Of a stretch of 64,000 nucleotides of DNA, positions 31,630 through 63,978 are shown one piece after another (the stretch's first letter is position 1; each line of letters opens with the position of its first letter). Position numbers and translations under genes: made by a program. The notes under the pieces are model-generated. The model was not told where the DNA came from. It worked only from the letters and a program-made list of their open reading frames with translations, and ran no database searches. The stretch is from Planctomyces sp. (lineage in GTDB: Bacteria; Planctomycetota; Planctomycetia; Planctomycetales; Planctomycetaceae), in NCBI GenBank assembly GCA_019636235.1, contig JAHBXW010000015.1, forward strand, positions 1 to 64,000, written 5' to 3'.

Positions 31630-37062
<5,433 letters not shown>

Positions 37063-43209: not shown

Positions 43210-43523
43210 CGCTTCGACCTGAAGAGGGCGAGTCTGCGGATTGCGCGGAATGCGGCGGCGTTGTCCGGGATGACCGTCCCCCGAGTCATCATCGACGTCG
43301 CCGGAGCGCCCGCAATGTTTCAACTCTAGTCAGACTGGAGAAGCGGGTGCAATAAGCGAATTCGTTCCGGTTATTCCGTTCGATTCCGGTCTGCGGGTCG
43401 GACGGCGCGTAGCAAATTGTTTGGTGGGAGCGGGTTCTGCGATTCGATGAATGCGGATGACCGGGGCTGCGCGTTGCGGCGCGTCCGCCGTCCGTCACAC
43501 CGAACTGCCCAGGGAGTGGGACC
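43210..43523. other. Divergent promoter region, about 310 bp
   Basis: The stretch separates the minus-strand LEPR-type gene from the plus-strand cysteine-rich protein gene. It includes an AT-richer part (about 43320-43430) that probably holds both promoters. No specific boxes are assigned. The short sequence TTCCGGT occurs twice near 43366 and 43385. Confidence 0.35.
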
Positions 43524-44774: not shown

Positions 44775-44838
44775 ACCGCTCGACCGCGTGCACGGCGTCC
44801 GAGAGGGGAGCGGCAGGCAGCCCGCAGGTCCGGCGTCG

Positions 44839-46551: not shown

Positions 46552-46731
46552 ATCGATTGTGCGGCCGCCCGCGCCGTCGGCGCGGTTCACGGAACCGCCG
46601 CAATCGATCGGCCGGGACGGGGACGATGCGGACCGGGGGCGGGAACCAATTGCCCGGGGTCCGGACGCAGGGCAGACTTGAGCGGCTGGGATTCTGCGCT
46701 CCCGGTGTTCCCCGTCAACGGCGGATCGGTC

Positions 46732-47823: not shown

Positions 47824-47961
47824 GGAGAGCTCTGAAATCTCCAGCGGGTTCCGGGCGGGCATCGAGCCGCGCCGCGTCCGGTTCGGAGACTTGTGTTACA
47901 GGGGACTGTCTGGCGGCGGAATGTTCCGGGAATCTGCGGCTTAAGCATCAGGGGTCTGTCG

Positions 47962-48480
47962 ATGTCGTCCGAAAGCGTCCATCAGAAGCTGAATCGCGTG
48001 CGGAAGCCCCGCGTCCACATCACGTACGACGTGGAGACGGAAGGCGCCGTGGTCCAGAAAGAGCTGCCGTTCGTCGTGGGCGTGATGGGGGACCTGTCGG
48101 GCAACGCTCCCAGCGAGAAGCCGAAGCCGCTGCGCGACCGCCGGTTCGTGCAGATCGACCGGGACAATTTCGACTCGGTGATGCGGCAGATGGCCCCGGG
48201 CCTGAACATCCGCGTTGAGAACACGATCGCCGGAGACGGCAGCGAGATTCCAGTGCAGCTCAAATTCGACTCGCTGGAGTCGTTCGAGCCGGCGAAGGTG
48301 GCCGAGCAGGTTCCGCAGCTCAAGTCGCTGCTGGAAACCCGCAACAAGCTCCGCGATCTGCTGACGAAGATTGATCGCAGCGAGAACCTCGAAGAGATTC
48401 TGGAGAACGTGCTGAAGAACACCGACGAGCTGCAGAAGCTCTCGAAGGAACTCGGAGTGGAGCCGAAGGACGAGGCGTAA
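47962..48480 (+). CDS. tssB: T6SS contractile sheath small subunit TssB (VipA)
   Basis: The product is 172 aa from ATG 47962. Family signatures are [50 protein letters not shown] and [18 protein letters not shown]. TssB pairs with TssC to make the contractile sheath that drives the effector tube. Length and order (tssB then tssC) are canonical. Confidence 0.96.
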
Positions 48481-48605: not shown

Positions 48606-50099
48606 ATGGCCAAGGCCGCAAAGGCGCAGACTGAAGGCGCTGCTGAGTCCGTGCAGTCCGAGAGCCTGTTGGAACAGGCGATCACCGCGACGAAGCAGAC
48701 GGAACGCTCTGAAGCGGAGGACCTGATCCGGACGCTGGTGGAACAGGTCAACCAGGGGACCGTGTCGGTCAGCAAGGACGTGCTGCGGACGATCCAGTCG
48801 GGCATCGACGCGATCGACGGCCTGCTGTCGCAGCAGCTCGGGGCGGTGATGCACCATCCGGAGTTCCAGAAGCTGGAAGGGGCCTGGCGGGGGCTGAACT
48901 ATCTGATCAAGAACTCGGAGACGGGCAACATGCTCCGCATCCGGGTGCTGAACCTGTCGAAGGACGATCTGAAGAAGGATCTGGCGCGGGCGACGGAGTT
49001 CGACCAGAGCGAGATCTTCAAGCGGATTTACGAGGACGAGTTCGGCATGCCGGGCGGCGAGCCCTACGGCGCGCTGATCGGCGACTACTATTTCCGGAAC
49101 CATCCGGACGACATCGACACGCTGGCCAAGATGTCGAACGTGGCGGCGGCGGCCTTCGCGCCGTTCATCACGGCGCCCTCGCATGAGCTGTTCGGCTTTG
49201 ATTCCTGGACGGACCTCTCCAAGCCGCGCGATCTGGCGAAGATCTTCCAGTCCAAGGAATACATCAAATGGAATTCGTTCCGGGAGAGCGAGGATTCGCG
49301 GTTCGTGGTGATGGCCATGCCGCGGGTGCTGTCGCGGCTGCCGTACGGGGCGAACACCGCGCCGATCGATGAGTTCGCCTTCGAGGAGGTCGCGCTCGAC
49401 GCCAAGGGGAACTCGGTCTCGGTCGGGCACGACGAATACTGCTGGATGAACGCCGCCTACGTACTCGGCGCCCGGCTGACGGACGCGTTTGCGAAGACGG
49501 GCTTCTGCACGGCGATTCGCGGTGCGGAGGGGGGCGGCAAAGTCGAGGGGCTGCCGGCGCATATTTTCCGCACCGACGAAGGCGACATGGACCTCAAGTG
49601 TCCGACGGAAATCGCCATCACCGACCGGCGCGAGAAGGAGCTCAGCGACGCCGGCTTCCTGCCGCTGTGCCATTACAAGAACAAGGATTACGCGGTCTTC
49701 TTCGGCGCGCAGTCGGCGCAGAAGCCGAAGCAGTACGACCGTCCCGAAGCGACGGCCAACGCGGCGATTTCCGCGCGGCTGCCGTACATGATGGCGACGT
49801 CGCGGTTCTCGCACTTCCTGAAGGTCATCGCCCGCGACAAGATCGGCTCGTTCATGGAGGCCACCGATTGCGAGGCCTGGCTGCACCGCTGGATTCACAA
49901 CTACGTGACGAGCGATCCCAGCCCCAGCGCGGAAACGAAGGCCCGCTGCCCGCTCCGCGAGGCCAAAATCCAGGTGCAGGAGATCCCGGGCAAGCCGGGC
50001 TCGTACCAGGCCGTATGCCACATGCGCCCCTGGCTGCAGATGGAAGAGCTGACGACGTCGATGCGGCTGGTGGCCCGCATTCCGCAGCTCGCCAAGTAG
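48606..50099 (+). CDS. tssC: T6SS contractile sheath large subunit TssC (VipB)
   Basis: The product is 497 aa. Signatures include HHPEFQKLEGAWRGLNYLIK, EFDQSEIFKRIYEDEFGMPG, PYGALIGDYYF, FAPFITAPSHELFG, EDSRFVVMAMPRVLSRLPYG, GFCTAIRGAEGGGKVEGLPA and a C-terminal RCPLREAKIQVQEIPGKPGS. It forms the outer sheath with TssB and is disassembled by TssH. ATG 48606 follows GACGAGAGCGAG. It is followed after 66 bp by a second TssC-like gene. Confidence 0.96.
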   Translation: MAKAAKAQTEGAAESVQSESLLEQAITATKQTERSEAEDLIRTLVEQVNQGTVSVSKDVLRTIQSGIDAIDGLLSQQLGAVMHHPEFQKLEGAWRGLNYLIKNSETGNMLRIRVLNLSKDDLKKDLARATEFDQSEIFKRIYEDEFGMPGGEPYGALIGDYYFRNHPDDIDTLAKMSNVAAAAFAPFITAPSHELFGFDSWTDLSKPRDLAKIFQSKEYIKWNSFRESEDSRFVVMAMPRVLSRLPYGANTAPIDEFAFEEVALDAKGNSVSVGHDEYCWMNAAYVLGARLTDAFAKTGFCTAIRGAEGGGKVEGLPAHIFRTDEGDMDLKCPTEIAITDRREKELSDAGFLPLCHYKNKDYAVFFGAQSAQKPKQYDRPEATANAAISARLPYMMATSRFSHFLKVIARDKIGSFMEATDCEAWLHRWIHNYVTSDPSPSAETKARCPLREAKIQVQEIPGKPGSYQAVCHMRPWLQMEELTTSMRLVARIPQLAK

Positions 50100-50165: not shown

Positions 50166-51695
50166 GTGCCCAAGTCGTCCGGAGCCGCCGCCTCGCCGGG
50201 GAGCGCGCCGCCGCGGGACGCCCCTGCGGCGTCCGCATCGCTGCTCGAGGACATCCTTCAGCAGGCGGGCGCACTGACCGCCGCCGATGGCCGCTGGCGG
50301 CAGTTTCACGCCGCGCGCGACGCCGGCTCGCAATTGCGGGCGATCTTTGGCCGCGCGCTGCCGTCCGATCCGGCGCGGATCGTCGAGCTCCTGAACCGGC
50401 TCGTCGCCGAAATCGACGTGCTGCTGAACGGCCAGATCAACGCCATCCTGCACGCGCCGGAACTGCAGGCGCTGGAGGCCACCTGGCGGGGCCTGCGGTA
50501 TCTGGCCGATTCGATCGACCCCGAGCAGGAGGGGGACGTCCGCATCCGCGTCTGGAACTGCTCGCGCCGCGAGCTTGTCCGCGATCTCGAGCGGGCCGTC
50601 GAATTCGATCAGAGCCAGTTGTTTCAGAAGGTCTACGAAGAGGAGTTCGGCACGCCGGGCGGCACGCCCTATGGCCTGTTGATCGCCGACTATCAGTTCA
50701 CAAATCATCCCGGGGACGTGGACCTGCTGGAGAAGCTGTCGCAGGTGGCGGCGGCGGCCTTCGCCCCCTGCGTGGCTGGCGCCGCACCGGGCCTGTTCGA
50801 CCTCGAGTCGTTCAGTCAGCTCGAGCGGATCGGCAGCTTCGACGCGACGTTCGACCGGGCGAACTACGTTCGCTGGCGGGCGCTGCGGGAGTCGTCCGAT
50901 GCGCGGTTCATCAGCCTGGCCATGCCCCGGATTCTGATGCGGGCGCCCCATCCCGAAACCACGACTCGGACGGACGGGTTCGTGTTCCGGGAGGATGTCT
51001 CGGCTCCCAACCGCGAGGGCTTCCTGTGGGGCAACGCCGCCTGGGGATTCGGCAACGTGGCCATCCGCGCGTTTCAGTCGGCGGGCTGGCTGGCGTCGGT
51101 GCGAGGCGTCCAGCCCGGGCAGCGGACGGGGGGCCTGGTCGATCCGCCGCGAATCTACTGGTTCGAATCGGACGCGGCGGGGGTCGCCCCCCGGTGCATC
51201 ACGGAGGTCGTGATCACCGAGCATCAGGACCGGATGCTCAGCGAATGCGGCATCATGCCGCTGTGCAGTCTGCCGGGCGCGGGGCACGCGGCGTTCTACT
51301 CGACGCAGTCGCTGCAGAAGGCCCGGACCTATGACACGCCGGAGGCCACGCTGAATGCGAAGATGTCCGGCATGTTCCAGTACATGCTCTGCGTGTCGCA
51401 GTTCGCACGGTATATCAAGACGATGGCCCGGGATTATGTGGGCGCCTTCACCGAAGTCGAGGACCTGCAGCGGCGGCTGTCGAACTGGCTGGTGAAATAT
51501 GTGACGCTGGACGACGACGCGAGCCCGTCGTCGAAAGCGAGGTTTCCACTGCGGCAGGGGCGGATCCTGCTGAAGCCGCACGCCGACCGGCCGGGTTCGT
51601 ACGTGTGCACCATCCATCTGCAGCCGCATTATGAACTCGACGACCTGTCCGCGGCCGTGCAACTGACCACTGAACTTTCCGGCCAGCGCCAGTAG
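50166..51695 (+). CDS. Second TssC-like protein (ImpD type)
   Basis: The product is 509 aa from GTG 50166. It is clearly homologous to the neighbouring TssC: APELQALEATWRGLRYLADS, EFDQSQLFQKVYEEEFGTPG, PYGLLIADYQF, DARFISLAMPRILMRAPHPE, SGMFQYMLCVSQFARYIKTM. It has an extra ~55-residue Ala/Ser/Pro N-terminus with a helix (LLEDILQQAGALTAAD). In Imp-type T6SS clusters a second sheath-like protein, ImpD, follows ImpC; this gene matches that position. It may form a cap, adaptor or alternative sheath ring. Its function is not settled in the family. Confidence 0.85.
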   Translation: MPKSSGAAASPGSAPPRDAPAASASLLEDILQQAGALTAADGRWRQFHAARDAGSQLRAIFGRALPSDPARIVELLNRLVAEIDVLLNGQINAILHAPELQALEATWRGLRYLADSIDPEQEGDVRIRVWNCSRRELVRDLERAVEFDQSQLFQKVYEEEFGTPGGTPYGLLIADYQFTNHPGDVDLLEKLSQVAAAAFAPCVAGAAPGLFDLESFSQLERIGSFDATFDRANYVRWRALRESSDARFISLAMPRILMRAPHPETTTRTDGFVFREDVSAPNREGFLWGNAAWGFGNVAIRAFQSAGWLASVRGVQPGQRTGGLVDPPRIYWFESDAAGVAPRCITEVVITEHQDRMLSECGIMPLCSLPGAGHAAFYSTQSLQKARTYDTPEATLNAKMSGMFQYMLCVSQFARYIKTMARDYVGAFTEVEDLQRRLSNWLVKYVTLDDDASPSSKARFPLRQGRILLKPHADRPGSYVCTIHLQPHYELDDLSAAVQLTTELSGQRQ

Positions 51696-51747
51696 GATGG
51701 GTTCCGCTCTCTGGCGCCGCGGCATCGAACGACATCGACGAGGACGG

Positions 51748-52581
51748 ATGATGAGCGCTTCCGAACTGTTTCGCTCCGGGGACCTGGCCGGGGCCTTGAA
51801 CGCCGCGCTGGAAGCGGTCAAGGCCTCGCCGACCGACCTCGCCGCCCGCTGGCAGCTCGCGGAACTCGCGGCGATTTCCGGCGATCTGGAACGGGCCGAC
51901 CGGCAGGTCGACGCGATCTCCACGCAGAGCCCAGAAACGGGCACGGTCGCGGCCGTGTTCCGCCAGTTGATCCGCGCCGAACTCTCCCGCCGGGAGGTGT
52001 TCGACAAGGGCCGCGTCCCGGAGTTCCTGGGGCAGCCCGGGCCGGCGCTGCAGGACGCCTTGAAGGCGCTGACGCAACTCCGTTCCGGCCAGGCCGCCGA
52101 AGCGGCGGCCACGGCGGCGGCCGTCGAAGAGACGCGCAAACAGGTGTCCGGTCGGCATAACGGCCAGCCATTCGCGGACATCCGCGACCTGGATGACCTC
52201 CTGGCGCCGGTGCTCGAAGTCCTGACGACGACCGGAAAGTATTACTGGGTCGGCTGGGAGAACATCGAGCTGCTGGAGTTTCTGCCGTTCGAACGTCCGC
52301 GGGACCTGTTGTGGCGGCAGGCGCACATCATCGTGAAGGGGGGTCCGGACGGCGTGGTGTACGTGCCGGCGGTGTACGAAGGGACGGCGACGGTCGAGGA
52401 TCCGGCGCTCCGGCTGGCGCGGTCGACGGACTGGATCGAGGGCGCGGGCGGGCAGGTGCGCGGCGTGGGCCAGCGGGTGCTGCTGATCGGCGAGTCGGAC
52501 GTGCCGATTCTTGAGTGCGGCAAGTTCGAGTTCGACGATCCGGTGCGGGTCATCGGGCGCGGCGACGAAGCGGAGGCCTGA
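51748..52581 (+). CDS. tagJ: T6SS accessory protein TagJ (ImpE family)
   Basis: The product is 277 aa. Two adjacent ATG codons (51748, 51751) follow GAGGACGG and the first is used here. The N-terminal half is TPR-like (LFRSGDLAGALNAALEAVKA, DLAARWQLAELAAISGDLER). The C-terminal half has the ImpE core: FADIRDLDDLLAPVLEVLTT, GKYYWVGWENIELLEFLPFE, PRDLLWRQAHIIVKGGPDG, VYVPAVYEGT. TagJ/HsiE binds the TssB N-terminus and may modulate sheath disassembly by ClpV. Its presence beside ImpD is the Imp/HSI-I style arrangement. Confidence 0.9.
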   Translation: MMSASELFRSGDLAGALNAALEAVKASPTDLAARWQLAELAAISGDLERADRQVDAISTQSPETGTVAAVFRQLIRAELSRREVFDKGRVPEFLGQPGPALQDALKALTQLRSGQAAEAAATAAAVEETRKQVSGRHNGQPFADIRDLDDLLAPVLEVLTTTGKYYWVGWENIELLEFLPFERPRDLLWRQAHIIVKGGPDGVVYVPAVYEGTATVEDPALRLARSTDWIEGAGGQVRGVGQRVLLIGESDVPILECGKFEFDDPVRVIGRGDEAEA

Positions 52582-52584
52582 CGC

Positions 52585-53073
52585 GTGGCGCAGCCTTCGG
52601 GAGAAGGGACGGTCCGGCAGTCGCTGCTCGACCGGCTGATCGACGAGCGGGTCGACCCGACGCAATCATCGCGGCAGGCGCAGTCGGCGCGTGTGCTGCG
52701 GGAGTCGGTGCGCCGCGACCTCGAGGACCTGTTCAATTCCAAGCGTCAATGGCAGACGTGGCCGGACGCCTGGGAGGAATTGAACGAATCGCTGGTGAAC
52801 TACGGCCTGCCGGACTTTTCCGGCGTCGTGTACGCGGGTCCGCAATCGCAGGGCGCGCTGCAGCGGATCCTGGAGGAGACGATCGAACGGTTCGAGCCGC
52901 GGCTCAGCGACGTGCAGGTCGAGTTCCAGAAGCGTCGCCGCTCGCAGACCCGCAAGCTGATGTTCAAGGTCCGCGCGGTGCTGCGCATGGATCCCTGGAC
53001 GGAGCCGGTGGCGTTTGAATCGGACGTCGAACCGGGCTCGGGGGCCATTCGCATCCGGGAGACGCCGACATGA
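52585..53073 (+). CDS. tssE: T6SS baseplate protein TssE (gp25-like)
   Basis: The product is 162 aa from GTG 52585, 3 bases after tagJ. Typical elements are VRQSLLDRLID at the start, ESVRRDLEDLFNSKRQ, NYGLPDFSGVVYAG, ALQRILEETIERFEPRLSDV and VRAVLRMDPWTEPVAFESDV. TssE is the gp25-like lysozyme-fold baseplate wedge protein without lysozyme activity. Its stop overlaps the tssF start (ATGA at 53070-53073). Confidence 0.94.
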   Translation: MAQPSGEGTVRQSLLDRLIDERVDPTQSSRQAQSARVLRESVRRDLEDLFNSKRQWQTWPDAWEELNESLVNYGLPDFSGVVYAGPQSQGALQRILEETIERFEPRLSDVQVEFQKRRRSQTRKLMFKVRAVLRMDPWTEPVAFESDVEPGSGAIRIRETPT

Positions 53074-54923
53074 GCTCCGATCTCCTGCGTTACTACAACG
53101 AGGAGCTGCGGTTCTTGCGGCAGCAGGGGCGGGAGTTCGCCGAGCGGCATCCGCAGATCGCCGCGCGCCTGACCCTGGACGACGAGTCCTCGGACAGCGT
53201 CCGCGACCCGCACGTCGAGCGTCTGCTGCAGGGGGTCGCGTTTCTGAACGCGCGGACCCGGTTGAAGCTGGACGATGATTTTCCGGAGATCACCGAGGCG
53301 CTGTTGAATGTCGTGGCGCCGCACTATTCGAATCCGGCGCCGGCGATGGCGATCGCCGAGGCGCGGCTGGCGCCGGCGCAGGCGGGGATGACGCAGGGCC
53401 TGCATCTGCCGCGGGGCACGATTCTGGAGTCGGCGCCCCTGCCGGACGGCGAGCCGCTGCGGTTCCGGACGGCGTACGCGCTGTCGCTGTGGCCGGCGAC
53501 GGTCGCCGACGCCGCGCTCGAACATCGCCCGTTCGCCGCCCCGGAAACGCCCGCCGCCAGAAGCGCCCAGGCGGTGCTGCGCCTGCGGCTGCAGTCCTTC
53601 AAACCCGATCCCCCGCTGGGCGAGCAGGCAATCGCGCCATTGCGGCTGCATCTCAGCGGCCAGGCGCCCTTCATTTACGATCTGTACGAGCTGCTGTTGA
53701 CCGGCGTGACAGGCGTGTCGGTCGCGGCCCCGGGGGCGACTCAGGCGGTGCAACTGCCGGCCGCGTCGACCATTCGCCGGGTCGGCTTCGAGCCCGAGGA
53801 TGCGGCCATTCCGTCGTCGCCGCGGACGCTGCCGGGGCACACGCTGCTGTCGGAGTTCTTCATCTTCCCGCAGAAGTTCCTGTTCCTGGACCTGCACATT
53901 CCTCCGGAGGTGTGGTCGCGGCAGGGCGCGGAGGCGGAAATCCTGCTGTTCCTGGACCGGGAGGCGACGGAACTGGCGCCCAGCGTGTCGCGGACGACGT
54001 TCCGAATGGGCTGCACGCCGGTGGTGAATCTGTACTCGCAGACGGCCGAGCCGATCCGCGTGACGCGGATGCAATCGGACTACCGGATCGTGCCGGACGC
54101 GCGGCGGCCGGGCGTGCATGAAGTGTACAGCGTGGACCGGGTGACGGCCGTGGACTCCGCCGGCGCCTCCCGGGAGGTGCATCCGCTGTATTCCTTTCGA
54201 CGCGAGGACGCGACCGGAACCGGATGCTTCTGGATCGCGTCGCGGAGAACGCCGGCCGGAGCCCCGCGCGCCGAGGAGGGCAGCGACCTGCACCTTTCGC
54301 TGGCCGATCTGGACTTCCATCCCACGACCCCCGACGCCATCACCCTGAACGTCGAGACGACCTGCGTGACCCGCGATCCGCTGCGCCTGCGGGATTTCGA
54401 AGGCGGCCTGCCGCGGGTGCAGCCGGTGAAGCACGACCGCTCGCTGATGACGATGCAGTGCATCACGCGACCGACGTCCGTGCTGCGGCCGGCGCTGGGC
54501 CGGGGCACGCGCTGGCGGTTGCTGTCGCACCTGGCGGTGAACGGGTTGTCGCTGCAGGATTTCGAGGCCGGCGCGGACGGCCTGCGGGAGCTGCTGCGGT
54601 TGTACAACCTGCGGGACGACAAGCGGGCGTCAGAGATGATCGCGGGGATCGCCGGAGTGCGGTTCGAGCGGACGACGGGCCGCATCCGCGAAGTCATCGA
54701 TGGCCGCCGTCATGAGTTTCTGTGCCGCGGCCAGCACGTGACCGTGGACTTTGATGAGTCGCGTTACTCGGCGGGGGGGCTGTATCTGTTCGCCTCCGTC
54801 CTGGAGCGGTTTCTGGGGGCCTACTGTTCCTTGAATTCGTTTGTGCGGATGTCGGCGATTTCACGTCAACGGGGGATGATAGCGCAATGGCCGCGGCGGG
54901 CGGGCGATCAGGTCCTGCTGTAA
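53070..54923 (+). CDS. tssF: T6SS baseplate protein TssF (ImpG/VasA)
   Basis: The product is 617 aa, normal length. The N-terminus is canonical (SSDLLRYYNEELRFLRQQGR, EFAERHPQIAARLTLDD, DPHVERLLQGVAFLNARTRL, LLNVVAPHYSNPAPAM). Later parts include FRTAYALSLWP, EFFIFPQKFLFLDLHIP and a C-terminal RGQHVTVDFDESRYSAGGLY, LFASVLERFLGAYCSLNSFV. TssF forms the baseplate wedge with TssG, TssE and TssK. Its end overlaps tssG by 37 bases in a different frame. Confidence 0.95.
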   Translation: MSSDLLRYYNEELRFLRQQGREFAERHPQIAARLTLDDESSDSVRDPHVERLLQGVAFLNARTRLKLDDDFPEITEALLNVVAPHYSNPAPAMAIAEARLAPAQAGMTQGLHLPRGTILESAPLPDGEPLRFRTAYALSLWPATVADAALEHRPFAAPETPAARSAQAVLRLRLQSFKPDPPLGEQAIAPLRLHLSGQAPFIYDLYELLLTGVTGVSVAAPGATQAVQLPAASTIRRVGFEPEDAAIPSSPRTLPGHTLLSEFFIFPQKFLFLDLHIPPEVWSRQGAEAEILLFLDREATELAPSVSRTTFRMGCTPVVNLYSQTAEPIRVTRMQSDYRIVPDARRPGVHEVYSVDRVTAVDSAGASREVHPLYSFRREDATGTGCFWIASRRTPAGAPRAEEGSDLHLSLADLDFHPTTPDAITLNVETTCVTRDPLRLRDFEGGLPRVQPVKHDRSLMTMQCITRPTSVLRPALGRGTRWRLLSHLAVNGLSLQDFEAGADGLRELLRLYNLRDDKRASEMIAGIAGVRFERTTGRIREVIDGRRHEFLCRGQHVTVDFDESRYSAGGLYLFASVLERFLGAYCSLNSFVRMSAISRQRGMIAQWPRRAGDQVLL

Positions 54924-56077
54924 TCGATGTCCTGCGGGCGCAGCCCGAGCGGTTCGGCTTTTTTCAGGCCGTGCGGCTGCTGCTGCAGTCTGCGCGGGAT
55001 CGCGCGGGTGCATCGTCGGGGGACATCGGGACGACGGCGCCGCCGGAGCTTGAGCCGCTGAGGTTTTCGTCCGCGCTGTCGATGTCGTTTCCCGGGGCGG
55101 AAGTGGCGTCAATCGCCGAGTCGTCGGGCAGGGAAGGCGAGCCGCGTCTGGAAGTCCGGATGGCGTGTTTTGGCCTGGTCGGCGCGGCGGGCGTGCTGCC
55201 CAGCCATTACACGCGGCTGCTGATCGATCGCGTCCGGCGTGGGGACGAGGCGCTGCGGGATTTTCTGAATCTGCTGGACCACCGCGCGGCATCGTTCTAT
55301 TTCCGGTCCTGGGAAAAACTGCGGCTGACGGCGGCCTACGAGCGTGCCAACTCTGTGGAGACGGCCGCCGAGGACGTCGTCACGCAGGGGCTGTATGCGC
55401 TGCTCGGGCTGGGGACGAACGCGCTCAGTCCGACGGATCGACGGACGGGGACGCTGCGGGGTCGGATGAGCGTCCCGGACGAATCGCTGTTGTATTTCGT
55501 GGGACTGTTCGTTCACCGTCCGCGGAATGTGCGGTCGCTGCGGAACCTGCTGCGGGAGTTCATGGGGCTGGCGATCGACGTGGAGCAGTTCCGGGGTCAG
55601 TGGCTGCACCTGTCGCGGGAAGATCAGTCGCAGTTGCCGACGGCGACGTCGCCGCTGGGCGGGAACTGCGGTCTGGGGGACTCGGCGATGCTGGGCTCGC
55701 GGGTCTGGACGGGCGAATCGCGGTTTCGCATTCGACTGGGTCCGCTGACCTGGAAGGAATTTCAGGAACTGTTGCCGGGCGGCCGACGATTGCGGCAGTT
55801 GTCGGAACTGACCGCGCTGTACGCCGGAACCGAGTACGATTTCGACATTCAGCCGGTGCTGCGCGCCGCGGAGATTCCACAAACGGCGCTGGCAGGGACT
55901 GCGCGGCTGGGATGGAATACGTGGATGTTGAGCGGTCCGCGCGATCAGGACGGCGACGAGGCGGTGTTTCCCCCCGAGGGGCGGCTGGCGCCGCGCCCCC
56001 GAAACGAAGACAGCCCTGCAGGCGGCCAGCGGGCGGCGACGACGTCGACCGCGGCCACGGTTTCAATGCAGCCTTGA
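54887..56077 (+). CDS. tssG: T6SS baseplate protein TssG (ImpH/VasB)
   Basis: The product is 396 aa. It opens with VIDVLRAQPERFGFFQAVRL, the usual TssG start. Other conserved parts are EPLRFSSALSMSFPGAEV, MACFGLVGAAGVLPSHYTRL, LRDFLNLLDHRAASFYFRSW, LRNLLREFMGLAIDVEQFRG and LGPLTWKEFQELLPGGRRLR. The extra C-terminal ~45 residues are Pro/Ala-rich and low complexity. The 37-base overlap with tssF means the pair is translationally coupled, fitting the TssF-TssG complex. Confidence 0.94.
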   Translation: MAAAGGRSGPAVIDVLRAQPERFGFFQAVRLLLQSARDRAGASSGDIGTTAPPELEPLRFSSALSMSFPGAEVASIAESSGREGEPRLEVRMACFGLVGAAGVLPSHYTRLLIDRVRRGDEALRDFLNLLDHRAASFYFRSWEKLRLTAAYERANSVETAAEDVVTQGLYALLGLGTNALSPTDRRTGTLRGRMSVPDESLLYFVGLFVHRPRNVRSLRNLLREFMGLAIDVEQFRGQWLHLSREDQSQLPTATSPLGGNCGLGDSAMLGSRVWTGESRFRIRLGPLTWKEFQELLPGGRRLRQLSELTALYAGTEYDFDIQPVLRAAEIPQTALAGTARLGWNTWMLSGPRDQDGDEAVFPPEGRLAPRPRNEDSPAGGQRAATTSTAATVSMQP

Positions 56078-56089
56078 GGATCCCGGACG

Positions 56090-58759
56090 ATGTCACTGAA
56101 TCTGAAGCAGTTGATCGGCAAGCTCAACGACGACAGCCGGCGCTCCATGGAGGCGGCCGCCGGGCTGTGCCTGTCGCGGACGAACTACAACATCGAGATT
56201 GAGCACTGGCTGCTGAAACTGCTGGACCTGCCGCAGTCCGAGCTGATGTCGATCATCAAGACGTTCGGAATCTCGGTCGACCGGCTGACGGCCGACCTGA
56301 CGAAGTCGATCGACAAGTTGAAGACCGGCAACGCCCGGCCGCCGGCGCTCAGCAAGAATGTCGTGGACCTGATTCGCGAGGCCTGGCTGGGGTCGTCGAT
56401 CGAGTTTCTGGATCAGGTGATCCGGACCGGGCACCTGGTGTACGCGCTGGTCGCGGATGAGGGTCTGAACCGGCAGATCTCCAGCGTCACGGCGGAGTTC
56501 GACAAGGTGTCCGCCGAGGAACTGAAGAAGCAGTATCACGCGATCACGCACGACGCTTCCGAGGCAGGAGCGCCCGCGGCGGCTGCGGCGTCCGCGTCGG
56601 GCGCGGGAGCGACGGGAGGCGCGCCCGGTCCGCGCCCCGGGGGCGGACGCACGCCGTCGCTCGACCAGTACACGATCGATCTGACGGGCCGCGCGGCCGC
56701 CGGACAGATCGACCCGGTGCTGGGCCGCGACAGCGAAATCCGGCAGGTGATGGACATCCTCTGTCGTCGCCGGCAGAACAACCCGATTCTCACCGGCGAG
56801 CCGGGCGTCGGAAAAACGGCCATCGCCGAGGGGTTCGCGCTGCGGATCGCCGCCAGGGACGTCCCTCCTTCGCTGCAGAACGTTTCATTGCGCACGCTGG
56901 ATCTGGGCCTGCTGCAGGCGGGCGCGGGCATGAAGGGCGAGTTCGAGAACAGGCTGAAAGCCGTCATCGAGGAGGTCAAGGCGTCGCCGCAGCCCATCAT
57001 TCTGTTTATCGACGAGGCCCACACGCTGATCGGCGCGGGGGGCTCGGCGGGCCAGGGGGACGCGGCCAACCTGCTCAAGCCGGCGCTGGCCCGCGGGGAG
57101 TTGCGGACGATCGCCGCGACGACCTGGGCGGAATACAAGAAGTATTTCGAGCGGGACGCTGCGCTGGCCCGCCGATTCCAGGTCGTGAAAGTCGAGGAGC
57201 CGACGGAGGACTCCGCGGTGGCCATGATGCGGGGCCTGATCGGCACGCTGGAAAAGCATCATGGCGTCGAGATCCTGTCGGACGCCGTGGAAGACGCGGT
57301 GCGGCTGTCCAAGCGGTACATTTCCGGCCGGCTGCTGCCGGACAAGGCCGTCAGCCTGCTGGACACGACGGGCGCGCGGATCAACCTCGCGCTGAATTCC
57401 ACGCCGTCGGCGATCGAGGACTGCCAGCGGCAGCTCGAACAGAACGACGTCTCGCTGAAGATTCTCGAGCGCGAGGCCCGGACCGGCGCGGATCACACCG
57501 AACGGCTGGCCAAGCTCGCCGAGGATCGCACGGCCATCACCGCCCGGCTGACGCAGCTGCAGGAACAGCTCGACAAAGAGCGCGAACTCGTGGCGAAGAT
57601 TCGCGAGCTCCGCGCTCCGGCCGAGGAGAACGGCCAGCCGAATCAGGAGGGCGCCGCGGCCGTCGACCCCGCGAACCTCGGCGCGGAGCTGAAGAAGCTG
57701 GAGGCGGAGCTGCGGACGATTCAGGGCGAAACGCCGCTGATGCACCCCTACGTGGATTCCCAGGCGATCGCCGAGACGATCGAGAGCTGGACCGGCATTC
57801 CGGTGGGGCGGATGGTGGCGGACGAAGTCCAGACGGTGCTGCAGCTGCGGTCGCTGATGGAGGATTCGATCGTCGGCCAGTCGCATGCCCTGGAGCTGAT
57901 CTCGCAGAGCATCCGGACGTCGCGGGCGAAGCTGACCGATCCGCGGATGCCGATCGGCGTGTTTCTGCTGGTGGGGACTAGCGGCGTGGGAAAAACGGAG
58001 ACGGCCATCACGCTGGCGAACCTGCTGTACGGCGGCGAGCAGAACATGACCGTCATCAACATGTCGGAGTTCAAGGAGGAGCACAAAGTCTCGCTGCTGA
58101 TGGGTTCGCCTCCAGGCTACGTCGGTTATGGCGAGGGGGGCGTGCTGACGGAGGCCGTCCGCCGCAAGCCCTACAGCGTGGTCCTGCTGGATGAGATGGA
58201 GAAGGCGCATCCCGGCGTGCAGGACATCTTCTACCAGGTGTTCGACAAGGGGCAGATGAAGGACGGCGAGGGACGGGACATCGACTTCCGGAACACGATC
58301 ATCCTGATGACGTCCAACGCGGGCACCGACCTGATCAAGAGCCTGTGCGCCGATCCGGACACGATGCCGAACGTCGAGGGCTTCACTGAAGCGGTGTTTC
58401 CCGAGCTGCTCAAGACGTTCAAGCCGGCGTTTCTGGGGCGCTGCACGATCGTGCCGTATTACCCGCTGTCGGACGACGTGCTGAAGCGGATCATCCGCCT
58501 GAAGCTGGGGAAGATCGGTCAGCGGATTCGGGAGAACTATCGGGCAGCGGTGAGTTTCTCGGACGAGATGGTGGAGGCCATTGCCGCGCGGTGCACCGAG
58601 GTGGACACCGGCGCGCGAAACATCGACCACATTCTCCGCAGGACGCTGCTGCCGGAACTGTCGTCGGAGTTCCTGGCCCGGATGGGGGCGGGGGATCCGA
58701 TCTCGCAGGTGACGGTCTCGTCCGGGGCGGATGGGAAGTTTCTGTACACGATCGGGTGA
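56090..58759 (+). CDS. tssH: T6SS sheath-recycling AAA+ ATPase TssH (ClpV)
   Basis: The product is 889 aa. The ClpN domain (1-160) is followed by an Ala/Gly linker. AAA-1 has Walker A GEPGVGKT at 236-243 and Walker B ILFIDEAHTLIGAGG. A coiled-coil middle domain spans ~430-560. AAA-2 has GTSGVGKT at 629-636 and VVLLDEMEKAHPGVQDIFYQ. It lies in a T6SS operon and has the Ala/Gly-rich N-linker common in ClpV, which separates it from general ClpB. It extracts TssC from contracted sheaths. It starts 12 bases after tssG. Confidence 0.95.
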   Translation: MSLNLKQLIGKLNDDSRRSMEAAAGLCLSRTNYNIEIEHWLLKLLDLPQSELMSIIKTFGISVDRLTADLTKSIDKLKTGNARPPALSKNVVDLIREAWLGSSIEFLDQVIRTGHLVYALVADEGLNRQISSVTAEFDKVSAEELKKQYHAITHDASEAGAPAAAAASASGAGATGGAPGPRPGGGRTPSLDQYTIDLTGRAAAGQIDPVLGRDSEIRQVMDILCRRRQNNPILTGEPGVGKTAIAEGFALRIAARDVPPSLQNVSLRTLDLGLLQAGAGMKGEFENRLKAVIEEVKASPQPIILFIDEAHTLIGAGGSAGQGDAANLLKPALARGELRTIAATTWAEYKKYFERDAALARRFQVVKVEEPTEDSAVAMMRGLIGTLEKHHGVEILSDAVEDAVRLSKRYISGRLLPDKAVSLLDTTGARINLALNSTPSAIEDCQRQLEQNDVSLKILEREARTGADHTERLAKLAEDRTAITARLTQLQEQLDKERELVAKIRELRAPAEENGQPNQEGAAAVDPANLGAELKKLEAELRTIQGETPLMHPYVDSQAIAETIESWTGIPVGRMVADEVQTVLQLRSLMEDSIVGQSHALELISQSIRTSRAKLTDPRMPIGVFLLVGTSGVGKTETAITLANLLYGGEQNMTVINMSEFKEEHKVSLLMGSPPGYVGYGEGGVLTEAVRRKPYSVVLLDEMEKAHPGVQDIFYQVFDKGQMKDGEGRDIDFRNTIILMTSNAGTDLIKSLCADPDTMPNVEGFTEAVFPELLKTFKPAFLGRCTIVPYYPLSDDVLKRIIRLKLGKIGQRIRENYRAAVSFSDEMVEAIAARCTEVDTGARNIDHILRRTLLPELSSEFLARMGAGDPISQVTVSSGADGKFLYTIG

Positions 58760-58944: not shown

Positions 58945-61900
58945 ATGCCGTCCTGGCGAGATGGTCGGAAACCGCAGACTCCGCGCAGCACGGGCGGCGA
59001 TCCCGTACCTCCGCCCCGCGGCGCATCCGGCGCCTCGCGATCCGAGGCGGCCAAACCCAAAGGCTCCTGGCGCGGAGGCGGCGCGGACGCGGCCGCGGAA
59101 CCGGCTCAGAAATGGCGGCGGCAGGAGGCCAAAGCGGCGCCCGGACTGACGCGCGCCTTCTGGGTGCGGACCGGCGGCCTGCTGACGCTGGCGCTGGCGG
59201 CTTTCCTCATTTACACCGTGTTTCAACGCCCGCAGGCCACGCCCGTCTTCGCGCTGTCGATCCTGGACTACGACCAGACGCCGGAAGAACTCGCCTCGTC
59301 CCCCTGGCCGCCAAACGCCTGGGTCGCGGAGGACTTCACGCACCTCGCCGAGGTCAACACGGCCAACCTCAAGTTCCAGCCGGTCGCCGAGCATCGATTC
59401 CTGGCTCAGGACGCCGGCAACCAGGGACTGTTGAAGCGGCTGGAAGATCGCCTGAACTCGGGACGGCCGGGGCGTCCGGGCCGCGGCAAGCCCGAAGTGC
59501 TGCTGATTTACCTGAGCGCGCACACGGCCGAGAACTCCCGGGGCGAGCCCTGCCTGATCACCAGCGATGCCCATCCGCTGGACGATTCCACCTGGTTGAA
59601 GTTCGAGTCGGTGCTGGCGACGCTCCGCGGAACCCGTCCGGAGATCCAGAAGCTGGTGCTGTTCGACTGCGGGCGTCTGCACCATGACCCGACGATCGGC
59701 CTGACTTCGAACACGTTTGTGGAGCGGGCCGCGGCGCTTGTTGAAGAGAAGCATCTGGAGAAGCCGGAGGCGCTGGCCGTCCTGTTCTCCCACGCGCCCG
59801 GGCAGCAATCCTGGGGCGCGCCGGAACTGGGGGGCAGCGCGTTCGGCTTCTTTGTCGCCGAGGGACTGCGCGGACACGCGAACGACAACGGCGACAAGTG
59901 GGTGTCGCTCGACGAGCTGCACCGGTTCGTTCGCGCCCAGGTCAGCCACTGGTCCCGGAACCGCCGCGGCGAACGCGGCGAGCAGACTCCGATTCTCGCC
60001 CCGGCCGCGGCTCCGAAGCTCGATCTGGCCTACGCGCAGTCCGGCGCACTGCCGGAAATCGTGAATCGCCCGACGTCGAACCCGGACTTCCGCGAGCGGA
60101 TGGGGCGGCTGCAGGACGCCTGGAAGGCCTTCGACGAAGAACGCGGCTCGATCGCCGCGCCGGACCGCACGTCCGCGACAGCCCGCGGCGCCATCATCCG
60201 CAAGCTCTGCCAGTTGGAGCTTCGGAACCTCGCTGGCGGGCATTATCGGATCACTGACCCGCGGCAGGAGATCGAAGCCCTGCTGCGGCGACTGCGCGTC
60301 GAACCCGCACGTCCGGCCATACCGCCGACGAGTCTGCCGCAGCATCGCTGGGCGCGCCAGGAGCCGACCGACGCGGACCTGGCCGCGTGGACGGCCGCGA
60401 CGCAGGCCCCCCTGTCGCCGTCCGCCCTGGCGCCGTTGCTGGAGCCGGTCGCTGCGCCGATTTCGACGACGGAACTGGCGCTGGCGCGGATGATTGCGGA
60501 CGGGGCCGATCCGGAGACCCCGCCGGACCTTGTGCGCGCGGCGCTCCGCGCGCGGCAGGCCGCCGAAGACGCCGCCTGTCCGGCGCCGCCGGCCTCAAGT
60601 TTCCTTGATCTGCGGTTCCTGCCCTGGACCCGCGATGCGCTGACGCAACTCGACCGCCAGCGCCGCGCCTGCGACGACGACCTGTTCGCCAACCGCTGGG
60701 ACGGACTCGAAGGCCGATTCGATCAGCTCACGCGGGACTACGAGGCGCAGCGCGACCTGGCGCGGGACGTCGCTCGGGCCTACACGATTTCCGAGGAGGC
60801 GCTGGCCGAACTCATCGACAACGCGCGCTGGCCGCTGGGCCTTCCGCAGCTCCCCCAGAAGGACATCGAGGCGCGGCTTGAGGAACTGAACCGTTCGATC
60901 GAACGGCTGCAGTCGTTGTTGCAGAACCCCGCGTCGGACCCGGCGGCGTTAAGCGCGCTCGTCCGGGACGTGGAGCGGATGCGGGAAGCGCTGCGCGACG
61001 ATCGGGGCGACATCCGCAGCCGGCTGCAGCGGGAGCTGCGCGAGGCGAGCGTGGCAGTCGCGGAAGGCTCCCGCATGCGGAACGCACTGGCGGCGGTGTG
61101 CCTGCCCTCGCAGGCGCTCAGCCACGAAGACCGTCGGGCGTGCCGCGATTACATTTACGCCTACGCGTACGAGGCCCACGGGAACGTCGCCAAGGTCTCG
61201 ACCGTCGAGTTCGGCACTCTGGCTGAGGCGCCGACTTCGTCGGAGATTTCGTCGGCCGCGGAAAAGCTGGAGCGGCTCGAACTGGCGTGGCTGCGGCGGC
61301 TGCAGGCGGACCAGGACGACGGAGAAGCGGGCGGGGCGGCGCTGCGTTCGCAGCTGCGGGCGTTTGCAACACGCTACAACGCGCTGACTGGCGTCGTCAC
61401 GCGCGAGTCATCGGCGGGCAATCTGGAGACCGCGCTGCGCCTGGCGCAAGTCGCATCGGTGGGGCGGGACCTCAAACCGCTGCAGACCGATGAGGCCCGT
61501 GTCGTGCGAATGCTGCAGGAAGGCGAAGCGGGCGCCTATTTGAGCTGGCTGGTGCGGCGGACGGTCGAGGATTTCTGGGGTCCGCAGGAAGCGCCGTTTT
61601 TCGAACGGATCGCGCGACGGCAGTTGTCCGCATTCAACTCGCTGAATGCCCCGGCTGCACCGGAACTCGCGGCCGAGATCGACCGGGCCGTCGAGGCGGC
61701 GTCCGCAGGGACGGCCCGACTGGCGGCCAACGATCTGGCCTTCAACACCGATCCGAAATCTCCGCTGGATCCCGCGGCCGCCGCGGCGCTCCGCCTGACG
61801 CTCGGCGTCGATCCCCGCACCGACGACGATGGCGTCGTGCCGGCCGGCAGGCCGGCGGGAACGGGCGCGCTCTGGGTGGAAGGCCGACGGCCCGCCTCCG

Positions 61901-63978
61901 TCATTCCGCTGCGCAGTTCGCGGCGGCTGGCGTTTGATGTTCGCGCCAGCACTCCGCAGGAGATTGTCCGCGAGGAACTGAAGGACGGCGCCCTCGCCCA
62001 AAGCGGCGGCGGCGAACTCATCGCGTTCTACCGCGGCCACACCGTCCGCCGGCCCCTGCGAATCACGAGCGTCGAGGAGGAATCCGTCGACTGGGACTAC
62101 CGGCCGAAGCCCCCCGAAGCGGCCCGGATCCGCGTCGAAGACCCCGGCGGCGAGCGGCCGATCGTGTACTTCGTCATCGACTGCTCGGCATCCATGACCG
62201 AGAAAGACATCAAGGGCGAGCTCGGCGACGACAAGGTGGCCCGCTGGGACGTCGCGGTCCAGGAGCTGACGTCGCTGTTGCGGTCGCTGTCCACGGATTA
62301 CCCGCGCCAGTTCGACGTGGGGCTGATCGCGTTCGGCCACCGGTATTCATTCACGACGTCGTCGACCGGCCGCCGCCGGCTGCAGAACCAGCCCTCTCCC
62401 TATGCGACCCGGCTCGAGGCGAGGCAGCTGAACCAGCTGGCGACGCCCAACTCGTTCGATGGCGAAGACGCCGACGCGATTTGCGCCGCCGCGGACGAGG
62501 CGATGTTCCAGTTGTTCAACGTTGACGTCGAGGTGCTCGTCGAACCGCGCCCCCTCGACGCCCGGCAGTTCGATGACCTCCGCGGCATGTTCGGAAACGC
62601 CGGCCTGCAGCCCTGGGGACAGACTCCGTTGTATGGAGCGATCCAGAAATCAGTTCAGCAACTCAAGGCGCCCCGGCTGGCGTCGCGGCCGCGCCGGATC
62701 ATCGTGATCTCCGACGGCATGGATTACAGGCCATCGATGGCCGGATGGGGCGGCGAGGGAATCGACTTCAAAACGCTGCAGACGCAGGTCCGCGAGGCGG
62801 GCATCGCGATCGACGTCGTCGGCATCGGAGGCGAGTTTGGCGACGCAAAGGAGGGCCGCGGCAAGCCGGAGGCCAACGCCGCCTACAAGGAACTCGAGAA
62901 GATCGCGACCTGCTACTTCGCTGCGAACCGCCAGGAGCTGCTGGCGACGCTGCAGCGATCGCTGTCGCCGCTGTCATACCATGTCTCGGCGCTGGACGGG
63001 ACGCCGCTCAGCCAGGAGTTGGCGCTGGGCCAGGAGTGGCGGATCGACCCTCCGCAGGCGCCGCTGGACCTGCTGGTGCAGCTCATGTCCGGCGCAGAAG
63101 TGCTGGATCAAAAGCCGCTGCGCGTGGAAGGCGGGGAACAGATTTCGCTGGGCGTCGAACGGACGGGACAGTCGGCGGAGCGTTCGCTGCGATTGCGTCT
63201 GCCGCGGTACGGGTTCGAAGGAGATGCGGACCGCGACGACCCGGACGGCGTGCGCCTGAACCGGAATCCCGTCACGACGCTGGCGGCGCCGTATCGCATC
63301 TTTGGCGGGGCCCTGCCAGAGCCGGCGCTGGATTCGTGTGCGGTCCTCGTGCACCAGCCGAAGTTCGATGCGGCCGGCGCCGGCCGGATTTTCCCCATCT
63401 CGTTCCAGTCCGGCAGCGACGAGCTGTTCTCGCCGCGTCCGGCGCTGGTCTGGATTCGCGCGACGCCGCGGGCCGGCGCCCGGGAATTCACGACGCGTCA
63501 CACCCTGTACCGCGAGTTTCTGCCGAACCGCCCCGTGCCGGTTGTGCCCGTGGAATACCCGGACTGGCCGGGCGAGGCCGAGGAATGCCGGCTGGAGATC
63601 GGGTTCAGCTATGCGCCGGTCGCTCCGGATTTCTCGTCGCGAGAGCTGTCGCAGGGGTCGATCCAGGTCGCCGGATCGGACGCGGAATGGAGCATGCGAA
63701 TGGGCCCGCGCGACCCGCGGGGGTTTGTGGTCGTCGTGACGGAGCGGCATGCGGCGCTTCCCGCGGACCCGGTGACGGCCCTGGTGACGATGTCGCCGGC
63801 CCCGGAGAAAATCCGCCGGCGGGTCTTCTCGACCTCGCCTCGGGTCGATCACGAGTTCTACTATGCCTCAGACGCGCTGCCTGCGGATGCCGAACTGAAG
63901 ATTCTCACCCGCAGGACGTTTGAGCAGCGGGCGACGATTCTGCCGGGGGCCGCGCACGTCCGGGCCGCGGTGAACTGA
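58945..63978 (+). CDS. T6SS-linked giant protein: TM anchor, caspase-like domain, VWA domain
   Basis: The product is 1677 aa from ATG 58945. A basic, Pro/Ala-rich cytoplasmic head leads to a transmembrane helix (VRTGGLLTLALAAFLIYTVF, about 74-93). The next ~250 residues look like a caspase-like C14 fold: strand LLIYLSAHTAENSRGEPCLI places a His at 193, and KLVLFDCGRLHHDPTIGL places a Cys at 242. A coiled-coil-rich middle follows (~500-1000). A von Willebrand A domain has the metal site DCSAS (1079-1083) in IVYFVIDCSASMTEKDIKGE and continues with IIVISDGMDYRP. The last ~330 residues are beta-rich. It starts 185 bp after tssH on the same strand, so it is probably part of the T6SS cluster. Caspase-like activity is inferred from motif and spacing only. 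Confidence 0.78.
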   Translation: MPSWRDGRKPQTPRSTGGDPVPPPRGASGASRSEAAKPKGSWRGGGADAAAEPAQKWRRQEAKAAPGLTRAFWVRTGGLLTLALAAFLIYTVFQRPQATPVFALSILDYDQTPEELASSPWPPNAWVAEDFTHLAEVNTANLKFQPVAEHRFLAQDAGNQGLLKRLEDRLNSGRPGRPGRGKPEVLLIYLSAHTAENSRGEPCLITSDAHPLDDSTWLKFESVLATLRGTRPEIQKLVLFDCGRLHHDPTIGLTSNTFVERAAALVEEKHLEKPEALAVLFSHAPGQQSWGAPELGGSAFGFFVAEGLRGHANDNGDKWVSLDELHRFVRAQVSHWSRNRRGERGEQTPILAPAAAPKLDLAYAQSGALPEIVNRPTSNPDFRERMGRLQDAWKAFDEERGSIAAPDRTSATARGAIIRKLCQLELRNLAGGHYRITDPRQEIEALLRRLRVEPARPAIPPTSLPQHRWARQEPTDADLAAWTAATQAPLSPSALAPLLEPVAAPISTTELALARMIADGADPETPPDLVRAALRARQAAEDAACPAPPASSFLDLRFLPWTRDALTQLDRQRRACDDDLFANRWDGLEGRFDQLTRDYEAQRDLARDVARAYTISEEALAELIDNARWPLGLPQLPQKDIEARLEELNRSIERLQSLLQNPASDPAALSALVRDVERMREALRDDRGDIRSRLQRELREASVAVAEGSRMRNALAAVCLPSQALSHEDRRACRDYIYAYAYEAHGNVAKVSTVEFGTLAEAPTSSEISSAAEKLERLELAWLRRLQADQDDGEAGGAALRSQLRAFATRYNALTGVVTRESSAGNLETALRLAQVASVGRDLKPLQTDEARVVRMLQEGEAGAYLSWLVRRTVEDFWGPQEAPFFERIARRQLSAFNSLNAPAAPELAAEIDRAVEAASAGTARLAANDLAFNTDPKSPLDPAAAAALRLTLGVDPRTDDDGVVPAGRPAGTGALWVEGRRPASVIPLRSSRRLAFDVRASTPQEIVREELKDGALAQSGGGELIAFYRGHTVRRPLRITSVEEESVDWDYRPKPPEAARIRVEDPGGERPIVYFVIDCSASMTEKDIKGELGDDKVARWDVAVQELTSLLRSLSTDYPRQFDVGLIAFGHRYSFTTSSTGRRRLQNQPSPYATRLEARQLNQLATPNSFDGEDADAICAAADEAMFQLFNVDVEVLVEPRPLDARQFDDLRGMFGNAGLQPWGQTPLYGAIQKSVQQLKAPRLASRPRRIIVISDGMDYRPSMAGWGGEGIDFKTLQTQVREAGIAIDVVGIGGEFGDAKEGRGKPEANAAYKELEKIATCYFAANRQELLATLQRSLSPLSYHVSALDGTPLSQELALGQEWRIDPPQAPLDLLVQLMSGAEVLDQKPLRVEGGEQISLGVERTGQSAERSLRLRLPRYGFEGDADRDDPDGVRLNRNPVTTLAAPYRIFGGALPEPALDSCAVLVHQPKFDAAGAGRIFPISFQSGSDELFSPRPALVWIRATPRAGAREFTTRHTLYREFLPNRPVPVVPVEYPDWPGEAEECRLEIGFSYAPVAPDFSSRELSQGSIQVAGSDAEWSMRMGPRDPRGFVVVVTERHAALPADPVTALVTMSPAPEKIRRRVFSTSPRVDHEFYYASDALPADAELKILTRRTFEQRATILPGAAHVRAAVN

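What the first reader, a model, noticed from the sequence alone, without database searches (positions are those of the whole stretch)
58945..63978. Caspase-like plus VWA giant membrane protein attached to a T6SS cluster
A single protein joins a transmembrane helix, a domain with caspase-type His (193) and Cys (242) in the right strand contexts (YLSAH, LFDCG), a long helical middle and a VWA domain with an intact DxSxS metal site. It is encoded after tssH in the same direction. No standard T6SS component has this build. It could be a proteolytic regulator, a maturation protease for effectors, or a self-destruction switch at the secretion apparatus. The caspase call rests on visual motif matching.
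Basis: partly seen in the sequence, partly recalled or inferred. Interest (0 to 1): 0.78.

Follow-up and report, generated by a model that had tools for sequence, protein, structure and literature searches.

The report
Giant pseudocaspase protein of planctomycete T6SS
This is a very large membrane protein of a bacterial 'spear gun' (type VI secretion system): it carries a caspase-shaped but probably inactive domain and an intact metal-binding adhesion-type domain, and it is probably one of the parts that replace the missing envelope-spanning half of the machine in planctomycetes.

Summary
In detail: one 1,677-aa ORF (58945-63978, +) between tssH and hcp encodes a basic tail, one TM segment, a true caspase fold (VIA Z 17.6), a helical middle and a VWA fold (Z 20.4) with intact MIDAS. 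The protease reading is not supported. Cys242 is one residue off: where caspases have D-x-Cys, this protein has D241-C242-G243, and 1 of 37 family members keeps both His193 and Cys243. More interesting: among 59 relatives, all 25 T6SS (TssK-positive) genomes carry this giant family and none of the other 34 does (score cut set afterwards), mostly as a homologous pair, VWA-bearing 'A' and VWA-less 'B'. In the same 25 genomes TssM has an N-domain, but the periplasmic PF06761 is 0/59, and complete copies stop just after TM3. TssJ is 0/59. A lipobox protein often encoded between B and A is detected in 20 of the 25 (14 strongly). Best reading: A, B and the lipoprotein replace the periplasmic half of TssM plus TssJ, a lineage-specific trans-envelope complex with the caspase fold as scaffold. 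Co-occurrence, truncation and folds are shown; assembly is inferred. New variant of a known kind.

The parts
58945..63978 (+). class A giant (TM - caspase-like - helical - VWA - beta domain), 1,677 aa
58951..58962 (+). SWRD in the basic N-terminal tail (residues 3-6); a W[RQKH] motif (defined after looking) occurs in 31 of 36 class A and 20 of 25 class B tails; the class B giant of the same genome also has SWRD
59155..59211 (+). single TM-like segment, residues 71-89; net positive before it (N-in, ectodomain periplasmic: inferred)
59230..60039 (+). caspase-like domain, residues 96-365
59521..59523 (+). His193 (catalytic-His column; His in 25 of 37 class A)
59665..59673 (+). D241-C242-G243: Gly in the catalytic-Cys column
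60082..61734 (+). long helical middle, about residues 380-930
   Evidence: DSSP on models; parts under pLDDT 50
62149..62976 (+). VWA domain, about residues 1069-1344, MIDAS D1079-S1081-S1083, T1227, D1257
62977..63975 (+). beta-rich C-terminal part
46678..47823 (+). tssA
47893..48480 (+). tssB (VipA)
48606..50099 (+). tssC (VipB) copy 1
50166..51695 (+). tssC copy 2
51697..52581 (+). impE/tagJ
52585..53073 (+). tssE
53070..54923 (+). tssF
54887..56077 (+). tssG
56090..58759 (+). tssH (ClpV-like)

Best explanation
The protein is a structural subunit of a lineage-specific T6SS trans-envelope complex. SHOWN: it lies inside a T6SS cluster; its family co-occurs with T6SS genome by genome; complete copies of the lineage's TssM end soon after TM3 and lack the whole periplasmic part; TssJ is not found; TssK and TssL are present; giants mostly come as a homologous pair A and B, often with short tssM or a lipobox-protein gene between them. 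INFERRED: A and B are anchored by one helix beside TssL and short TssM, contact them (or TssK) through the N-terminal S-W-R motif, and send ~1,500-residue ectodomains through the periplasm, where helical middles and beta/VWA ends build the channel or arches and meet the lipoprotein (TssJ substitute) at the outer membrane. The caspase fold is an inactive, possibly pairing scaffold; the VWA metal site of A is the working site, for example a divalent-metal contact with the partner giant, lipoprotein or cell wall.
For: In 59 genomes: TssK 25, TssL 25, IcmF N-domain 25, the same 25 genomes; TssC 24. Giant-family hits of 96 bits or more in all 25, and at most 73 bits in the 34 others (cut chosen after seeing scores). 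PF06761 0/59 and TssJ PF12790 0/59, E. coli control found each time. Of 11 named loci with a short-tssM match, the 9 complete copies end 2-53 residues after the last TM-like segment; the G000 copy (560 aa) ends likewise. Short TssM aligns with columns 95-463 of 1,139 of canonical TssM, Prob 98.9, E 1.5e-17. B - short tssM - A in that order in L089, L091, G001, G008, G022; in all five the downstream giant has the MIDAS motif and the upstream one lacks it. G039 has two T6SSs, each with TssK, TssL, short TssM, A and B. Two giants (or pieces) in 29 of 41 named loci, 25 of the 30 loci of 15 kb or more. Net charge around the TM +4.4 to -1.2 (A), +4.8 to -0.2 (B); TM in 34 of 36 and 25 of 25. Lipoprotein family at E<=1e-3 in 20 of the 25 T6SS genomes, over 50 bits in 14 of 25 and 0 of 34. 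Precedent: Bacteroidota TssNQOPR replaces TssJLM and TssR has a VWA-like domain (PMC10781749, passages).
Against: No sequence relation of giants to canonical TssM (hhalign Prob 0.8 and 0.7), so replacement is argued from position and co-occurrence only. The VWA form (A) was not found in four f2 genomes (G046, G050, G052, G055), which carry one shorter B-like giant, nor in G036 (78% complete; only a 405-aa B piece at a contig end). The lipoprotein was not found in 5 of 25 T6SS genomes, 6 of the 20 hits are under 50 bits, and 6 of 34 T6SS-free genomes give hits up to 48.7 bits. Phylum-wide, the class A middle region was found in 12 of 16 own-class TssK genomes (two candidates scored per genome) and once without a TssK match (G346). 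In the window genome the parts lie on four contigs. Co-occurrence ignores phylogenetic relatedness, and at least six named loci come from genomes that are also among the 59 (equal contig lengths), so the two surveys are not independent. PF12790 may miss a divergent TssJ.
Confidence: 0.66

Rival explanations
1. Active caspase-type protease that regulates the T6SS, matures effectors or kills the cell.
For: Caspase fold, His193 in place, a cysteine next to the catalytic column (C242), 13 of 37 members have H193+C242.
Against: Catalytic column is Gly; 1 of 37 has H193+C243; 17 of 37 have no Cys at either column. In 20 other planctomycete caspase-like proteins Cys falls at 243 in 9 (all with the His) and at 242 in 2. 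The domain faces the periplasm by the charge rule.
Confidence: 0.07
2. Regulatory envelope sensor: a VWA/pseudocaspase receptor that, like PpkA (kinase with VWA, recalled, not looked up), triggers firing through kinases and the FHA protein encoded nearby, without building the channel.
For: Kinase genes upstream in the window (27553-30315, 31630-37062), genes similar to the window's kinase-WD40 protein beside giants in several relatives (which part is shared was not examined), FHA protein downstream, VWA metal site intact.
Against: The giants are as widespread as TssK/L/short M in the 59 genomes and mostly paired; a regulator alone leaves the missing TssM periplasmic half unexplained.
Confidence: 0.16
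3. Surface adhesin or exported T6SS cargo merely encoded in the cluster.
For: The VWA region resembles pilus adhesins PitA and SpaC; often near vgrG (17 of 41 named loci).
Against: N-terminal TM segment with basic tail, no toxin family found by Pfam or NCBIfam in the window protein, presence in all 25 T6SS genomes, homologous partner B.
Confidence: 0.06

Closest known systems
TssJ-TssL-TssM membrane complex (T6SS-i)
   Same: TssK, TssL and the TssM cytoplasmic domain with its TM helices are retained; a candidate lipoprotein is present
   Different: TssM periplasmic part and TssJ not found; two giants and another lipobox protein instead, giants without sequence relation to TssM
TssNQOPR membrane complex of Bacteroidota T6SS-iii
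   Same: lineage-specific replacement of the canonical complex; TssR carries a VWA-like domain placed in the periplasm (PMC10781749, passages)
   Different: there tssJ, tssL and tssM are all absent and TssR is a lipoprotein of about 790 residues; here TssL and half of TssM stay and the VWA protein is a 1,677-aa TM protein with a caspase fold
Bacterial caspase homologues (Peptidase_C14, orthocaspases and pseudo-orthocaspases)
   Same: fold; loss of the dyad is known in bacteria (PMC6426788, start of abstract in the listing), Cys-His conservation is 64% in Planctomycetes (PMC3501461, passages), and 11 of 20 other planctomycete caspase-like proteins here lack Cys at the column
   Different: giant TM-VWA architecture in T6SS clusters; 'von Willebrand' and 'VWA' have 0 occurrences in the main text of PMC3501461
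VWA-bearing pilus adhesins (PitA, SpaC)
   Same: VWA with adjoining beta domains
   Different: Gram-positive pilins; no caspase domain or T6SS link known to me (recalled)

Membership tests
Active Peptidase_C14 (caspase) peptidases | caspase fold | tested here: met
   Pfam above gathering score; VIA Z 17.6, rmsd 3.3, 214 aligned
Active Peptidase_C14 (caspase) peptidases | catalytic His | tested here: met
   His193 in the column; 25 of 37 in class A
Active Peptidase_C14 (caspase) peptidases | catalytic Cys (D-x-C) | tested here: not met
   Gly243 in the column; C243 in 3 of 37
VWA with MIDAS | DxSxS...T...D on a VWA fold | tested here: met
   for the window protein. Conservation figures are partly circular: named loci were found by a pattern holding the first motif, and class A was set apart by its VWA; T/S1227 and D1257 (38 of 38) are outside the pattern. 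In the 11 class A rows, found without the pattern, D and first Ser are 11 of 11, second Ser 9 (Thr 2)
T6SS-i membrane complex | TssL (DotU) | tested here: met
   25 of 59 genomes incl. own C14:58548
T6SS-i membrane complex | TssM with periplasmic domain | tested here: not met
   PF06761 0 of 59; 9 complete short TssM end after TM3
T6SS-i membrane complex | TssJ lipoprotein | tested here: not met
   PF12790 0 of 59, control positive; a divergent TssJ could be missed
TssM homologue (is the giant itself a TssM?) | profile similarity to canonical TssM | tested here: inconclusive
   hhalign Prob 0.8 (A) and 0.7 (B) against 9 canonical TssM; folds not compared directly
T6SS-iii TssR | lipoprotein with periplasmic VWA, with TssN/O/P/Q | not tested
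   TssN/O/P/Q/R not searched; architecture differs (TM anchor, 1,677 aa)

The most novel reading that the evidence does not exclude
Planctomycetia use an undescribed T6SS subtype in which TssM is halved: only its cytoplasmic part survives, and the envelope-spanning half has been replaced by a pair of giant single-pass proteins (pseudocaspase + VWA 'A'; pseudocaspase + VWA-less, beta-domain-ending 'B') plus a cysteine-rich lipoprotein, docked by a shared N-terminal S-W-R motif. A caspase fold would here serve as an architectural part of a secretion nanomachine.
Probability: 0.54. Interest if true: 0.86.

Novelty: new variant of a known kind. Interest (0 to 1): 0.74.

Why it matters
A replacement of TssJLM is described for Bacteroidota (PMC10781749, passages). 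A second, independent solution in a phylum with unusual envelopes would show that the sheath/baseplate is a module that can be mounted on different envelope complexes, would suggest why detectors that list 14 mandatory canonical components (PMC4793230, passages) may miss these systems, and would give a non-proteolytic job for a caspase fold. It is directly testable: A, B, short tssM and the lipoprotein are named genes.

Tried and rejected
Giant = diverged TssM: profile comparison gave nothing. Catalysis through Cys242: rejected as the family function after register checks; not excluded for this one protein. PDB sequence search with the caspase region alone: only phosphoglucomutase chance hits at E about 0.9; with profile A1 VWA-type and a few other chains, no caspase. 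ORF 37303-43323 (-), 2,006 aa: repetitive, no Pfam match, unrelated. First gene caller by GC3 chose antisense ORFs and was replaced by a codon model, which still misses genes in low-GC relatives. Fold searches tested chiefly the caspase and VWA parts; the helical middle and the beta end were barely tested and nothing is claimed on their fold. The class A middle-region search over 392 genomes scored two candidates per genome and is only a lower bound.

Literature (open PMC library only): searches listed no paper that I recognised as describing a planctomycete T6SS membrane complex or a caspase-VWA T6SS protein; listings seen; passages read of PMC10781749, PMC3482391, PMC3501461, PMC4793230, PMC4452313; of PMC6426788 only the start of its abstract in the listing.

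Full report
WHAT IS IN THE WINDOW. One long ORF (58945-63978, +, 1,677 aa) follows tssA-B-C-C-impE-E-F-G-H, and beyond the window's end the same cluster continues with two hcp, vgrG, an FHA gene and a PAAR gene (locus L031). So the gene is inside, not at the edge of, a T6SS cluster.

THE CASPASE DOMAIN IS PROBABLY INACTIVE. In 37 class A proteins aligned over the domain, Asp241 is nearly invariant (35 D, 2 E) but His is at 193 in 25, Cys at 242 in 18, Cys at 243 in 3. In 20 other caspase-like proteins of fetched planctomycete loci (one of them, L026, a piece of a T6SS-linked giant) Cys falls at column 243 in 9, all with the His, and at 242 in 2. The D-x-C-R/H motif (recalled) therefore puts Gly243 of the window protein in the nucleophile place; Cys242 is its neighbour. 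Only one class A member (L071) has His193 plus Cys243. Pfam C14 matches 2 of 10 members, VWA_2 10 of 10. The metal site of the VWA is kept: T/S1227 and D1257 in 38 of 38. This is partly circular: those loci were found by a pattern holding the first motif, and class A was set apart by its VWA, so it says that where the first motif is present the rest of the site is too.

THE FAMILY IS A PART OF THE T6SS. In 59 related genomes TssK, TssL and the TssM N-domain are found in the same 25, TssC in 24. A profile of full-length class A proteins scores 96 bits or more in all 25 and at most 73 bits in the other 34 (cut set afterwards; the best hits of the 34 fall on the caspase-like or the VWA part). Of 41 named loci (all carry planctomycete titles except L076 'bacterium' and L086 'Deltaproteobacteria') 16 hold a clear tss gene, 9 only vgrG or hcp, 4 only a divergent tssC-like gene (89-123 bits), 12 none; 10 of these 12 are held stretches under 17 kb. 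29 of 41, and 25 of the 30 of 15 kb or more, hold a second giant or piece of one. Class B is homologous to A over the tail, TM, caspase-like part and helical middle (Prob 100, E 3.4e-54); in three B proteins examined Pfam finds no VWA and weak, below-cut-off matches to carboxypeptidase-regulatory/Ig-type beta domains at the end. G000 has its B on another contig (C42:236926-241743).

WHAT IS MISSING TELLS WHAT IT DOES. PF06761, the TssM region beyond the N-domain, is found in 0 of 59, while the IcmF N-domain is found in 25 of 59. The short TssM has TM1-TM2, a cytoplasmic part and a last TM, then stops: 2-53 residues later in the 9 complete copies of the 11 named loci that have it. It aligns with columns 95-463 of 1,139 of canonical TssM from other Planctomycetota (Prob 98.9, E 1.5e-17). 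TssJ is 0 of 59. So the machine keeps the baseplate dock and lacks a recognisable envelope crossing. In L089, L091, G001, G008 and G022 the order is giant - short tssM - giant; in all five the downstream giant has the MIDAS motif and the upstream one does not, although the upstream giants of four of them score slightly better with my class A than my class B profile. In G039, which has two T6SSs, each has its own K, L, short M, A and B. In nine other loci a 294-573 aa protein with a lipobox (recognised by eye) lies between B and A; the family is cysteine-rich, with weak HEAT matches in up to 5 of 10 and a parvulin-type domain in 2 of 10. It is detected in 20 of the 25 T6SS genomes (14 over 50 bits) and in 6 of the 34 others (all under 50 bits). 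Both giants carry a basic tail with a W[RQKH] motif (31 of 36 A, 20 of 25 B; motif defined after looking) and one TM segment, net charge falling across it from +4.4 to -1.2 (A) and +4.8 to -0.2 (B), as expected if ~1,500 residues are periplasmic.

MECHANISM. I infer that A and B, held by TssL/short TssM on the inside and by the lipoprotein on the outside, form the periplasmic tube or arches that TssM and TssJ form elsewhere. The VWA may make a metal-dependent contact in that assembly; the caspase fold may give an A-B or A-A contact, as caspase domains pair (the best structural match, 3h11, is the caspase-8:c-FLIP-L complex; that c-FLIP is inactive is recalled). A purely regulatory role remains the main rival.

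LIMITS. No experiment; co-occurrence is not corrected for kinship; the 59 genomes and the 41 named loci overlap (at least L059, L064, L066, L078, L082, L091 by equal contig length); four related genomes (f2) have only a short B-like giant; 5 of 25 lack a lipoprotein match. Outside this class 34 of 66 TssK-positive genomes have PF06761 and 32 do not (counted by hand from the tables), so other envelope solutions probably exist. The class A middle is found in 13 of 392 genomes of the phylum: 12 of the 16 own-class TssK genomes and one genome (G346) without a TssK match.

PRECEDENT. Bacteroidota T6SS-iii replaces TssJLM by TssNQOPR, and TssR has a VWA-like domain (PMC10781749, passages). The present case keeps TssL and half of TssM, and uses unrelated giants. 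I found no description of it in the searched open library; subscription papers and preprints were not searched.

Noticed in passing
window 44788-46551 (+): A 587-aa SecA-like ATPase lacking the C-terminal part of SecA, upstream of tssA; a homologue (468 bits) lies between PAAR and tssA in G009 (L131:10348-12345). Secondary SecA_DEAD proteins of planctomycetes are described beside T1SS-like genes (PMC4452313, passages); 'type VI' has 0 occurrences there.
   Followed up: partly
L096:11206-12888 (G000:C14): The G000 short TssM lacks the Walker A loop that is invariant in the 9 canonical TssM of other Planctomycetota (alignment).
   Followed up: no
G000 contigs C7, C14, C15, C42: T6SS parts of this genome are spread over four contigs: tail/baseplate + A (C7), K-L-short M (C14), lipoprotein family match (C15:77005-77598), B (C42).
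   Followed up: partly
phylum sample: 32 of 66 TssK-positive genomes outside the class have neither PF06761 nor a class A match: further uncharted T6SS envelope complexes are likely.
   Followed up: no
L031:14922-16067 (G000:C7): FHA domain and (below cut-off) DUF4123 in one protein between vgrG and PAAR; similar genes near vgrG in several relatives.
   Followed up: no
window 27553-30315 and 31630-37062 (-): Two Ser/Thr kinases, one with a long WD40 repeat part, upstream of the T6SS genes; genes similar to the latter sit beside giants in G002, G046, G050, G052, G055 (which part is shared was not examined).
   Followed up: no
window 37303-43323 (-): 2,006-aa TTG-started, Thr/Asn/Gly-rich repetitive protein, no Pfam match.
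   Followed up: partly
window 48606-50099 and 50166-51695: Tandem tssC paralogues; a tandem pair is also found in several relatives.
   Followed up: no
L086 (NZHD01000028.1): The A/B pair occurs in a MAG labelled Deltaproteobacteria (MED660); mislabelled bin or transfer not resolved.
   Followed up: no
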